From assembly GCF_003634635.1 (NCBI RefSeq), contig NZ_RBJB01000002.1, positions 1,054,001 to 1,118,000 of the forward strand: 64,000 nt of DNA. The letters are read 5' to 3'. A program made the translations under genes and the position numbers. The DNA is from Marinobacter nauticus. Lineage in GTDB: Bacteria > Pseudomonadota > Gammaproteobacteria > Pseudomonadales > Oleiphilaceae. The notes beneath the pieces are model-generated. The model was not told where the DNA came from. It saw only the letters and a program-made list of their open reading frames with translations, and did no database searches. This document shows, piece by piece, positions 51,029 through 54,041 of this stretch (position 1 is the stretch's first letter; each line of letters starts with the position of its first letter).

Positions 51029-51865
51029 TCAGTCAAGAACCCGGAACCGGACTTCATAGCCGGTAAATTTGCGGATATTGATTACACCGGTGTCGAGCAT
51101 CAGATACTGGCCTTTGATACCTTCCAGCAAGCCCTCCACTTCCGGCGTTTTGTCCAGATTATGGGTTTTCACCTTGGCCGGCCATACCTGAACCGGATAA
51201 CCCAGCCCAAGTGTGGCTTCGTCCACAATTCGTATGCTGTCTTCACCATGCTGCGCCCGCAATTGCGCCAGGTCGTCTGCGATCAAGTCCAACAGCCGCT
51301 CACGCTCTTGCACCAGATCCAGCTCCGGCACATCACCCTTTAGCATGGCTCGCCAGTTGGTGCGGTCAGCCACGTGGTTCTTGCACGCTACTTCTACCAG
51401 ACCAGACAGGTAACGGCTGGCGACCCGCAGCATCGGTATCGCCGTTACCGCCCCTTGATCAATCCAGCGGGTCGGTACCTGGGTGGCCCGGGTTATACCC
51501 ACTTTCAAGCCGCTGGAATTGGCCAGATACACGACATGTTCAACCATGCAGTTGGCCTCGCCCCACTCCGGCTCCCGGCAGGTACCCAGGTGATAGTGGC
51601 ATTTTTCCGGGCTCATGATGCAGCTGTCGCAGGCGGCCAGCTTTCGGAAACACGGATAGCAGTAGCCCTGATTGAAACTCTTTTTGGTGGTGCGATCGCA
51701 ATGAATACAGCGAATCACGCCATCAAAATTCAGCCGCACCTTATGACCAATAAGGTCATTCAGGGTAATGCGTTTGTCGCCGATAGCCAGGTTATAGGCC
51801 ACCGGGTCGCCGGCCTCTGCCGGCATCTTACGAAGCCGACCGGTTACATCAATGGATTCGCTCAA
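51029..51865 (-). CDS. DUF2797 protein with zinc-finger-like and GIY-YIG-like parts
   Basis: This 278-residue protein has a Cys-rich centre (CIHCD, YCYPCF, CDSCIMSPEKCHYH, CREP) that should bind zinc, followed by HVVYLANSSGLKVGITR and PTRWIDQGA, which recall the GIY-YIG nuclease fold. Function is unknown in the family. It overlaps YeaC by four bases and lies upstream of pepN, an order also found in pseudomonads. Confidence 0.82.
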   Translation of the reverse strand: MSESIDVTGRLRKMPAEAGDPVAYNLAIGDKRITLNDLIGHKVRLNFDGVIRCIHCDRTTKKSFNQGYCYPCFRKLAACDSCIMSPEKCHYHLGTCREPEWGEANCMVEHVVYLANSSGLKVGITRATQVPTRWIDQGAVTAIPMLRVASRYLSGLVEVACKNHVADRTNWRAMLKGDVPELDLVQERERLLDLIADDLAQLRAQHGEDSIRIVDEATLGLGYPVQVWPAKVKTHNLDKTPEVEGLLEGIKGQYLMLDTGVINIRKFTGYEVRFRVLD

Positions 51866-52161
51866 ACCTTGACCTCAACAAACTGATCGGGGTCCACATC
51901 GTTGTTGCCCTGGCGATCTTTGCGGAACTGCACAGACGGATCGCAAGCGGTACCGGCTTTCTCGCCACGGTCCAGGTATCCCACTCGCTGTTCTTCCGGG
52001 ATGTTGTGCTTTTCTTCATAATAAATCACCGCTTCCAGGCTGATAGCGCGCTGCTCACGGGTCAGCGCGCGACCATCTGGCCATTTACCAAGCTCAATGG
52101 CCCGTTTCAGGTTGCGGTAAACCGTCGGGTCCAGCCGCTCAATCAGTTCTTCGTATGTCAT
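51862..52161 (-). CDS. YeaC-like protein (DUF1315)
   Basis: This 99-residue protein matches the YeaC family: MTYEELIERLDPTVYRNLKRAIELGKWPDGRALT, QRAISLEAVIYYEEKHN. Function is unknown. A promoter TTGTCA-N17-TTTATA (52214-52186 on the minus strand) and GGAGG before the ATG are visible. A Fur-like box lies next to this promoter and overlaps a divergent one. Confidence 0.88.
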   Translation of the reverse strand: MTYEELIERLDPTVYRNLKRAIELGKWPDGRALTREQRAISLEAVIYYEEKHNIPEEQRVGYLDRGEKAGTACDPSVQFRKDRQGNNDVDPDQFVEVKV

Positions 52162-52207: not shown

Positions 52208-52237
52208 TTGACAATTAAAAATGATAACGATTATCAT
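52208..52237 (+). promoter_or_regulatory. Rightward promoter of the candidate small RNA
   Basis: A perfect -35 TTGACA (52208-52213) and TATCAT (52232-52237, five of six matches) are 18 bases apart. The predicted start is near 52244, one base before the first hairpin. No protein gene lies to the right on this strand. Confidence 0.65.
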
Positions 52238-52238
52238 T
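52220..52238. promoter_or_regulatory. Fur box
   Basis: AATGATAACGATTATCATT is a near-perfect inverted repeat that contains TGATAAC-G-ATTATCA, very close to the 7-1-7 Fur consensus. It covers the spacer and -10 of the rightward promoter, so Fe-Fur should block that promoter. It lies just upstream of the leftward YeaC promoter. Confidence 0.8.
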
Positions 52239-52243
52239 AATTC

Positions 52244-52333
52244 ACCAAATGACAACGGTCGTATCATTTGGTCTCTCTCATCAGGAGCTAAAAGCTCTTT
52301 TAACAGCCTCACCTTTTGGTGGGGCTTTTTTTT
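52244..52333 (+). ncRNA. Candidate Fur-repressed small RNA (about 90 nt)
   Basis: From the predicted start, three hairpins follow: ACCAAATGA/TCATTTGGT (52244-52272), AGGAGCT/AGCTCTT with an AAA loop (52283-52299) and a nine-pair terminator stem AGCCTCACC/GGTGGGGCT (52305-52326) that ends in eight T residues. A C/T-rich unpaired stretch, CTCTCTCATC (52273-52282), could pair with purine-rich ribosome sites. The terminator works only rightward, and no rightward gene precedes it. The design is that of RyhB or PrrF-type iron-sparing RNAs, though I see no clear sequence match to either. Transcription and targets are not shown. Confidence 0.65.
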
Positions 52334-52336
52334 GTT

Positions 52337-53011
52337 TCAGCCTCGGTATCGACGAGGAGGCATGATCGCCGCCATCGCCAACCCGGCCAGAAAGCCGCCC
52401 AGGTGTGCCTCATTGGCCATGCGACCCACGCCAATCATCTCCGGCACTGGCGTAAAGCCAATGATCATCCACACCAGCGCAAAGGTCACGAGTGCCGGCG
52501 GGAATTGGAAACGCGGCAGTCTTCGCTGGCTCAACCAGCAATAACCGAGGATGCCGTACACCACCCCCGAGAGCCCGCCGAACAGCGGGCCGGACACCAG
52601 ATACTGTAGAAGATTGGACGCCAGACTGGTGGCCAGAAACAGTCCTACCAGCCGTGCCCGGCCGTCCATCCATTCGATCTGACTGCCCAGGAACCAGAGC
52701 ATCACCGAGTTGAAGATGATATGGGTCCAGCTGAAATGCAGGAAATCCGGCGTCAGCAGCCTCCAGACCTGGCCTCCCGAAAGGGTCATAGAGAGCGCTT
52801 CCAGGCGCCCGGCCAGTGTGCTGAAGGTATCCCAGCTGAACGGCCGGGGGTCGACAATCATCATAGCGGCGGCAAAATTGCTCTGCCCCATGCCGGTCAG
52901 CCATACCATCACCACGGCAACCACGATGACGCCAATGACAAAAGGAGCATGGCGGGGCGCAGGCTGCCAGCGGCCGCCAGGAGTGATCGGGGAAGACGAC
53001 GGACTATCCAA
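52337..53011 (-). CDS. Rhomboid-family intramembrane serine protease (GlpG-like)
   Basis: This 224-residue protein has about six membrane helices and rhomboid motifs: WRLLTPDFLHFSWTHIIFNSVMLWFLG, the catalytic Ser in GGLSGVVYGILGY and catalytic His in NEAHLGGFLAG. I place the start at TTG 53011 because GAGAGG stands five to six bases upstream and 16 bases separate it from the previous stop; the longer frame to 53155 overlaps the phosphoesterase gene. Substrates are unknown. Its stop is only four bases from the T run of the opposed small-RNA terminator. Confidence 0.85.
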   Translation of the reverse strand: MDSPSSSPITPGGRWQPAPRHAPFVIGVIVVAVVMVWLTGMGQSNFAAAMMIVDPRPFSWDTFSTLAGRLEALSMTLSGGQVWRLLTPDFLHFSWTHIIFNSVMLWFLGSQIEWMDGRARLVGLFLATSLASNLLQYLVSGPLFGGLSGVVYGILGYCWLSQRRLPRFQFPPALVTFALVWMIIGFTPVPEMIGVGRMANEAHLGGFLAGLAMAAIMPPRRYRG

Positions 53012-53027
53012 AACTACCTCTCTGGTG

Positions 53028-54041
53028 TTAGCGGGCGACACTATCTTCGCTGGTCGGGTAATCGGGCTGCTCCGGCCGGTCAACATCAACCCAGACAAAT
53101 TTGTCCGAAGAGAGCACTTTTTCCCCATCAAACCGATAGGCCACCAATTTGCCATACTTCACGGCGCTGAAATCAATACACGCCACATTGTGCTTGAGCG
53201 GAGCGGGGGCACCCTCCATCCAGTAATGCCCGACAAACACCGGCGGCGCGTCCAGTGGATAGGTAATCAGCTGCTTGCGCTCCTCCTCGCGCAAAGTCCT
53301 GCTGGCCACCTCCGGCGGCAGCGGATCCGGCTGAAACACCACATCTGCATAGGTTTGCGGGTCGTCTGCCCAGAACTTGGTACGGAAGAACTGCCGGACG
53401 TAGCCATCCCGGCCCGTAATGGACATCCCTTCCGGCAGGCGCAGGTCGGTTCCGCGCAACAGGGTATCCATCACCTGCCCGGCGAAGGATTCGATGGCCG
53501 CCGAGGCGTGCAGGAAATCTTCGTCGATACAGGCGCCGCCCTGGCTCTGGCGGAACTGATCAATCAGGGTCTGATCCCAGCAGGCATGCACCACGCGAAA
53601 GCCTTCCTCATCAATGAACAGCGGAATGCTGTAAAACCACTCCAGAAATTCGTTCCATTCATGTGGATACGCATCAAACTGCTCAAGGGTTTCCTTGATC
53701 AGCCGATCGTGGCGGGCATTGTGTTCCCTCAGAAACTTCTTGCCGCTGCCTGGCCGTGCCCGGGTGCAGTAACCCAGTGCGTTGTACTCGTGGTTGCCCA
53801 TGACAATTCGGGCAAAGCCGTGCTCCACCATGTCACGCACCAGGTGCAACGCTTCCCGGATTCTCGGCCCACGATCAATAATATCGCCGATAAAAATGGC
53901 CTGTCGGCTGGGGTGCTGGTAAATGCCGTTCCGCTTCCGATACCCCATCTGCTCCAGCAATCGCTCCAGGGTATGGGCGCAGCCGTGGATGTCACCAATA
54001 ACGTCGTAGCCGCGATGTGCGGTTGTCTTGATTGCCGCCAT
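53028..54041 (-). CDS. Metallophosphoesterase (calcineurin-like, PrpE/ApaH-related)
   Basis: This 337-residue protein has the metal-binding motifs of the family: YDVIGDIHGCAHTLERLL, FIGDIIDRGPRIREAL, IVMGNHEYNALGY and the late VFVGHYW. It probably hydrolyses phosphoesters such as Ap4A or phosphoproteins; the substrate is unknown. I prefer ATG 54041 over TTG 54047. It lies three bases after nadK in the same direction and upstream of the rhomboid gene. Confidence 0.88.
   Translation of the reverse strand: MAAIKTTAHRGYDVIGDIHGCAHTLERLLEQMGYRKRNGIYQHPSRQAIFIGDIIDRGPRIREALHLVRDMVEHGFARIVMGNHEYNALGYCTRARPGSGKKFLREHNARHDRLIKETLEQFDAYPHEWNEFLEWFYSIPLFIDEEGFRVVHACWDQTLIDQFRQSQGGACIDEDFLHASAAIESFAGQVMDTLLRGTDLRLPEGMSITGRDGYVRQFFRTKFWADDPQTYADVVFQPDPLPPEVASRTLREEERKQLITYPLDAPPVFVGHYWMEGAPAPLKHNVACIDFSAVKYGKLVAYRFDGEKVLSSDKFVWVDVDRPEQPDYPTSEDSVAR

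What the first reader, a model, noticed from the sequence alone, without database searches (positions are those of the whole stretch)
52208..52333. Candidate Fur-controlled small RNA between YeaC and rhomboid genes
The sequence shows a perfect TTGACA, a five-of-six -10 box 18 bases on, a near-perfect Fur box lying over the promoter, three hairpins and an eight-T terminator that works only rightward. No rightward gene precedes that terminator. Together these make a complete transcription unit of about 90 nt. By analogy with RyhB and PrrF it would be made under iron starvation and would repress iron-using proteins. The unpaired CTCTCTCATC could pair with ribosome sites. I see no obvious match to known RyhB or PrrF cores, so it may be a new family.
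Basis: partly seen in the sequence, partly recalled or inferred. Interest (0 to 1): 0.88.

Follow-up and report, generated by a model that had tools for sequence, protein, structure and literature searches.

The report
Divergent PrrF-type iron-sparing RNA in Marinobacter
A short stretch between two ordinary genes of a marine bacterium most likely encodes a small regulatory RNA that is switched on by iron starvation, is a distant cousin of the Pseudomonas PrrF RNAs, and is predicted to block an iron-rich enzyme of denitrification.

Summary
In detail: a TTGACA/TATCAT promoter under a Fur box, a three-hairpin ~90-nt RNA (fold z -5.1) and a T8 terminator. The element lies between the same two genes in 36 of 37 Marinobacter genomes searched (the miss is 62% complete); -35, Fur box, hairpin 1 and the CUCUCUCAUCAGG core are conserved while flanks diverge. 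Rfam PrrF is the best match, full length, though far below its gathering score (36.5 vs 90 bits). A model of the transcript alone recovers PrrF genes elsewhere, and Thalassolituus/Oceanobacter relatives join UCUCUCUCAUCA to the PrrF motif GCUAAUCACGG. I read it as a divergent branch of the PrrF lineage: it lacks GCUAAUCACGG and has its own covarying second hairpin. Likely mechanism: Fur derepression, then Hfq-assisted pairing of the exposed core with mRNAs of iron proteins. Best predicted target: nirS (cytochrome cd1 nitrite reductase), whose start codon lies in CCUGAUGAGAG in 17 of 19 leaders. sodB and sdhC are not supported by pairing energy. No expression, Fur or target test exists here.

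The parts
52208..52213 (+). -35 box TTGACA
   Evidence: TTGACN + 16-19 nt + TAnnnT in 36 of 37 homologues
52223..52241 (+). Fur box, overlapping the -10
   Evidence: 15 to 19 of 19 consensus matches in 37 of 37 homologues
52232..52237 (+). -10 box TATCAT
52244..52333 (+). predicted sRNA transcript, about 90 nt (start inferred from the -10)
52244..52272 (+). hairpin 1, the best-conserved structure (arm identity 0.93 and 0.89)
   Evidence: pairs kept mostly unchanged or with one-sided changes
52273..52285 (+). core CUCUCUCAUCAGG; 52273-52282 unpaired in the fold; proposed seed
52283..52299 (+). hairpin 2, not seen in Pseudomonas PrrF; 4 of 5 counted pairs have two-sided changes
52305..52333 (+). 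intrinsic terminator and T8 tract
51862..52161 (-). context: DUF1315 (YeaC-family) gene, divergent from the sRNA
52337..53155 (-). context: rhomboid protease gene, convergent with the sRNA (its start codon is uncertain)

Best explanation
52208-52333 is the gene of a ~90-nt Fur-repressed trans-acting sRNA, a divergent Marinobacter branch of the PrrF lineage. With iron, Fur covers the -10 and keeps it off. In iron starvation it is transcribed to the T8 terminator, is bound by Hfq, and its exposed CUCUCUCAUC-AGG core pairs at translation starts of mRNAs for iron-using proteins and lowers their synthesis (iron sparing). Best-supported target: nirS (cytochrome cd1 nitrite reductase), where CCUGAUGAGAG spans the start codon. 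Weaker candidates: nirJ in part of the species, and sdhC and sodB through GAGAGA tracts. Shown here: gene anatomy, conservation, covariation, link to PrrF, complementarity, presence of fur and hfq genes. Inferred: transcription, Fur response, Hfq binding, repression.
For: Anatomy and fold. Genus-wide conservation with diverging flanks and conserved neighbours in 36 of 36 loci. Covariation: 95.9% of cells paired; 7 pairs with two-sided change vs 4.0 in shuffles, 3 of 500 shuffles as high. PrrF is the best Rfam match, E 4.7e-5 over 184 nt; RF00444 over 244 genomes of the order gives a graded series of hits; transcript-only model R1 coincides with RF00444 places in 39 of 40 matches on 30 such loci; bridge sequences. 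Hfq and Fur genes present. nirS: exact 11-mer only at the RNA gene and at the nirS start in the own genome, in 17 of 19 leaders, mean duplex -25.3 vs -17.9 in dinucleotide shuffles, 4 of 300 as low; 1 of 264 background genes as strong.
Against: No expression data. RF00444 gathering score missed by far; in the order-wide search with stricter filters 6 of 9 genus genomes were hit and the own genome was not. Without promoter and Fur box the PrrF match drops to 22.5 bits, E 0.03, behind three other families by E-value. Model R2 from the bridge sequences scores the window only 19.8 bits, E 0.019. Chance hits of R1 reach 25.7 bits in 300 kb of the own genome and 37.9 bits elsewhere. sodB and sdhC fail the energy test (134 of 300 and 181 of 200 shuffles as low). 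nirS is in only 20 of 41 genus genomes, so it cannot be the reason the RNA is kept everywhere. PrrF1 overexpression in Stutzerimonas did not change nitrite accumulation (PMC13086519, passages).
Confidence: 0.8

Rival explanations
1. A Fur-controlled iron-sparing sRNA that is not related to PrrF by descent and converged on the CUCAUCAGG core and the promoter-hairpin-terminator layout.
For: Transcript-only PrrF score is weak (22.5 bits); R2 barely finds the window; gene neighbours differ from those of PrrF in other families (0 of 29 loci with YeaC or rhomboid within about 1.5 kb).
Against: Full-length match order, R1 finding the PrrF places, bridge RNAs with both halves of the core, global alignment of window and a Pseudomonas-type transcript z 7.4 over mononucleotide shuffles (shared terminator and T tract contribute).
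Confidence: 0.13
2. The Fur box and promoter serve another unit (for example divergent YeaC) and the hairpins are incidental or only a terminator.
For: A Fur site lies in the YeaC upstream region, and Fur sites can serve divergent genes (general knowledge).
Against: The promoter points away from YeaC and no rightward gene precedes the terminator; hairpin 1 and core are the best-conserved stretch; hairpin 2 and terminator covary.
Confidence: 0.03
3. A small RNA of this kind whose main job is not iron sparing (for example a dual-function RNA with a peptide, or an sRNA with non-iron targets).
For: An ATG inside hairpin 1 opens a frame in most copies; 11 of 14 other core-complement sites are not at starts of iron genes by my reading; nirS is absent from about half of the genomes.
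Against: The frame is not kept; Fur box in 37 of 37 copies; the single exact non-self core complement lies on nirS.
Confidence: 0.06

Closest known systems
PrrF1/PrrF2 of Pseudomonas (Rfam RF00444)
   Same: Order of parts (promoter with Fur box, hairpin, unpaired UCUC-CUCAUCAGG core, terminator); best Rfam match over the full model; a tandem copy in one Marinobacter genome (G020), as PrrF1/PrrF2 are tandem in P. aeruginosa (PMC4211561, passages).
   Different: 36.5 bits against gathering 90; about 90 nt, without the model stretch that lies between Fur box and hairpin 1 in PrrF (alignment); lacks GCUAAUCACGG and has hairpin 2 instead; different genomic place.
PrrF-like RNAs of Oceanobacter, Thalassolituus, Bacterioplanes and Oleispira (sub-threshold, found here)
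   Same: UCUCUCUCAUCA identical to the Marinobacter core.
   Different: Keep the PrrF half GCUAAUCACGG; longer 5' part; some in two or three copies.
RyhB of enterobacteria (Rfam RF00057)
   Same: Same control logic: Fur-repressed, iron sparing (general knowledge).
   Different: No sequence relation: 11.4 bits, E 7.3, gathering 55.

Membership tests
PrrF (RF00444) | score at or above Rfam's gathering score (90 bits) | tested here: not met
   36.5 bits; no hit in the gathering scan of the window
PrrF (RF00444) | Fur box over the promoter | tested here: met
   (sequence only; binding untested)
PrrF (RF00444) | core UCUC-CUCAUCARG-CUAAUCACGG | tested here: not met
   first half present (CUCUCUCAUCAGG), second half GCUAAUCACGG absent in the 37 aligned copies
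PrrF (RF00444) | common descent with PrrF | tested here: inconclusive
   favoured; but single scores are near noise and R2 is weak; no phylogeny made
PrrF (RF00444) | iron-repressed expression and repression of iron-protein mRNAs | not testable with these tools
   only complementarity could be computed
RyhB (RF00057) | match to the Rfam model | tested here: not met
   11.4 bits, E 7.3, gathering 55
Hfq-dependent trans-acting sRNA (functional class) | intrinsic terminator with U tail, and an hfq gene in the genome | tested here: met
Hfq-dependent trans-acting sRNA (functional class) | binding to Hfq | not testable with these tools
   none

The most novel reading that the evidence does not exclude
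In Marinobacter the PrrF-type RNA has been rewired toward denitrification: when iron is short it closes the nirS start codon (and in some species a site before nirJ), so that the nitrite-to-NO step of these marine denitrifiers is gated by iron after transcription. The nirS genes of 23 non-Marinobacter loci of the order lack the site, so this would be a lineage-specific gain.
Probability: 0.5. Interest if true: 0.72.

Novelty: new variant of a known kind. Interest (0 to 1): 0.55.

Why it matters
If right, a whole marine genus that Rfam leaves unannotated at its own threshold has a specific iron-starvation RNA; the PrrF lineage reaches well beyond Pseudomonas through its order, with many sub-threshold members and tandem copies; and there is a concrete, bench-testable link between iron limitation and cytochrome cd1 denitrification.

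Tried and rejected
Rfam at gathering score finds only a tRNA in the window. Other families in the permissive lists (STnc180, ncS54, rnk leader, anti-hemB, GcvB and others) stay far below their gathering scores and, in the alignments shown, match largely through the terminator and U tail; rejected, although three of them have lower E-values than PrrF once promoter and Fur box are removed. R1 places in G224, G268:C11, G174, G142 and G131 show no Fur box or core by eye: taken as chance; the one in G224 outranks three of the four PrrF places. L187 25.7-bit hit: U-rich stretch with a terminator, chance. R1 also scores 30.1 bits on the reverse strand of the window element itself, because hairpin 1 is a palindrome. 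Yersinia vastinensis pattern hit L252: no Fur box (10 of 19) or T tract, chance.

Targets. Ferredoxin reductase (fpr-like): strong in the own genome (5 of 264 background as low; 6 of 300 shuffles), but the site is coding and decays in many of the 30 genomes read; not claimed. nirJ: duplex of -20 kcal/mol or lower in 9 of 19 leaders; 5 of 300 shuffles as low over 18 of them (L219 left out); partial. sodB: 130 of 264 background genes as low, 134 of 300 shuffles. sdhC: 181 of 200 shuffles as low. Dinucleotide shuffles of a UC-rich core keep UCUC runs, so they are a severe control for GAGAGA tracts.

Papers. Searches: Marinobacter+PrrF, Marinobacter+RyhB, PrrF+ArrF, PrrF+Halomonas, Marinobacter+Fur+small RNA, PrrF+nirS, small RNA+nirS+Fur, Marinobacter+sRNA/Hfq (79, 12 of 477 listed), PrrF with Oceanospirillales names (80, 12 of 227 listed). 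No listing shown reported this RNA or a direct PrrF-core/nirS pairing; subscription journals are largely not held and the capped lists were not read through. Passages only were seen in PMC7857532, PMC11559095, PMC8233155, PMC13414033, PMC4211561, PMC2851614, PMC8395346, PMC13086519 and PMC12004955.

Full report
What is there. On the + strand TTGACA (52208-52213) and TATCAT (52232-52237), 18 nt apart, make a promoter-like site, 11 of 12. A Fur box lies over the -10 (52223-52241, 16 of 19 to a recalled consensus; the only site with up to 3 mismatches in 64 kb, 0 in 100 shuffles). From about 52244 the strand folds into hairpin 1 (52244-52272), an open CUCUCUCAUC, hairpin 2 (52283-52299) and a terminator (52305-52326) with T8 to 52333; -32.5 kcal/mol, z -5.07, 0 of 200 shuffles as low. 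Promoter and terminator alone are not beyond chance in the 1.5 kb scanned (2 found vs 0.9, 2 vs 1.2); their combination with the Fur box, and conservation, are.

Conservation. DNA search of 58 genomes: own genome and 35 of 36 other same-genus genomes match, the miss being 62% complete; 1 of 21 genomes of other families matches 21 bases of the Fur box. I aligned 37 copies from 36 genomes; G020 has two copies 233 nt apart. Mean pairwise identity: -35 0.90, Fur box 0.84, hairpin-1 arms 0.93 and 0.89, core 0.93, terminator hairpin 0.74; upstream 0.49, downstream 0.41. In 36 of 36 loci tblastn finds the YeaC-family gene on one side and the rhomboid gene on the other. On 34 distinct sequences 95.9% of cells pair; 7 pairs have two-sided changes (4 of 5 in hairpin 2, 3 of 8 in the terminator, 0 of 8 in hairpin 1) against 4.0 in shuffles, 3 of 500 as high. 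In the named scan 23 of 44 stretches are Marinobacter-type and all 23 bear the name Marinobacter; six of their contig lengths equal those of G002, G009, G010, G023, G024 and G029, so the genus is Marinobacter. A Marinobacter MAG (bin133, L230) agrees with the window over the stretch printed.

Relation to PrrF. At gathering scores Rfam gives nothing here. In the permissive search of 184 nt PrrF is first, full length, 36.5 bits, E 4.7e-5; the next best E is 0.0095. That model includes promoter and Fur box; on 52244-52345 alone the match is 22.5 bits, E 0.03, behind ncS54, anti-hemB and GcvB by E-value. RF00444 over 244 genomes of the order: 40 genomes hit at E 0.001, 9 over the cut-off (family f20, presumably Pseudomonadaceae); the rest form a graded series from 34 to 84 bits, with pairs or triples in several genomes; of 9 genomes of this genus 6 are hit (36.7-44.5 bits) and 3, the own genome included, are not, under the stricter filters used. 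R1, a model of the Marinobacter transcript without Fur box, over the same 244 genomes hits 9 of 9 genus genomes and the one other genome of the family (G222); of 9 further places 4 are RF00444 places (E 3.3e-6, 2.3e-4, 6.7e-4, 9.9e-4) and 5 are not and look like chance, the best of these at E 5.9e-5. On 30 loci that RF00444 had found, 39 of R1's 40 matches (E up to 10) lie at RF00444 places and 29 of 30 loci are hit; one locus (L066) is of this genus and was in the training set (coordinates compared by eye). Single R1 scores of 25-38 bits also occur by chance, so the coincidence, not the score, is the evidence; all these RNAs share a terminator with a U tail, which helps any such model. In the named scan 20 of 44 stretches (Oceanobacter, Thalassolituus, Bacterioplanes, Oleispira and others) read UCUCUCUCAUCAAGCUAAUCACGG: the Marinobacter core joined to the PrrF second half. 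R2, built from 13 of these, finds 16 of 16 other PrrF loci given to it (28.6-45.8 bits) and the window as its only window match, weakly (19.8 bits, E 0.019). I read the Marinobacter RNA as a divergent branch that lacks the stretch between Fur box and hairpin 1 and GCUAAUCACGG, and has hairpin 2 instead. By Rfam's definition it is not a member of RF00444; common descent is favoured, not proven.

How it may work. fur and hfq genes are present. The core complement with up to 3 mismatches has 14 places besides the gene itself, against 9 for the reversed pattern; by eye 3 of the 14 lie at translation starts: nirS (Cytochrom_D1, 425 bits), nirJ (TIGR04051, above cut-off) and a ferredoxin reductase. 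The 11-mer CCUGAUGAGAG occurs exactly twice in the genome: in the RNA gene and across the nirS start codon. 20 of 41 genus genomes have nirS. Of 19 leaders used (L184 dropped because its start is uncertain, L185 a fragment) 17 carry the exact 11-mer; mean duplex -25.3 kcal/mol against -17.9 for dinucleotide shuffles (4 of 300 as low) and -10.9 for mononucleotide shuffles (0 of 300). 1 of 264 background genes is as strong as nirS. Part of the 11-mer is Shine-Dalgarno spacing and coding sequence, so some of its conservation has another reason. 23 of 23 non-Marinobacter nirS loci lack TGATGAG near the start. For the classical targets sodB and sdhC the energy test fails (134 of 300 and 181 of 200 shuffles as low), though GAGAGA, complementary to UCUCUC, lies within 40 nt upstream in 29 of 30 sodB and 20 of 29 sdhC leaders and in 2 of 264 background leaders, whose starts were called by a simple heuristic. 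I hold nirS likely, sdhC and sodB possible.

Known work. Passages read describe PrrF as Fur-repressed, iron-sparing RNAs of Pseudomonas with a relative, ArrF, in Azotobacter (PMC4211561, PMC2851614). In P. aeruginosa nirL responds to iron and heme through the prrF locus, and the authors saw no obvious complementarity of PrrF itself to that operon (PMC2851614). PrrF1 overexpression in a Stutzerimonas strain did not change nitrite accumulation (PMC13086519), which speaks against a general PrrF-nirS link, though not against one particular to Marinobacter.

Verdict. A real, conserved Fur-box-controlled sRNA gene of a known kind, divergent enough to fall outside Rfam's PrrF, with one strong and testable target prediction.

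Noticed in passing
L014 (G020) 1501-1616 and 1734-1849: One Marinobacter genome carries two tandem copies of the RNA, both with Fur boxes; the -35 of one has drifted.
   Followed up: partly
L258 140-163, 1510-1533, 2714-2737; L222, L226, L247: Oleispira/Thalassolituus MAGs carry PrrF-core RNAs (three copies in L258) in a longer setting; within 140 nt no good Fur box was scored, but the middle L258 copy shows a Fur-like AT-rich stretch further up and a long-stem terminator.
   Followed up: partly
L234 (Oceanobacter kriegii) 1685-1708, 2077-2100, 2387-2410; L059 (G136): Three tandem PrrF-like copies outside Pseudomonas.
   Followed up: no
L319-L348, sdhC leader: AGAGAGTGTGAGAGCGCT directly before the GTG start of sdhC is identical in 29 of 29 readable Marinobacter leaders and the first codons are nearly unchanged: an unexplained regulatory-looking element.
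   Followed up: partly
L106-L135, sodB leader: GAGAGA just upstream of the ribosome site in 29 of 30 Marinobacter sodB leaders.
   Followed up: partly
G036:C1:2174379-2175145: The ferredoxin reductase gene appears split into two frames in this genome.
   Followed up: no
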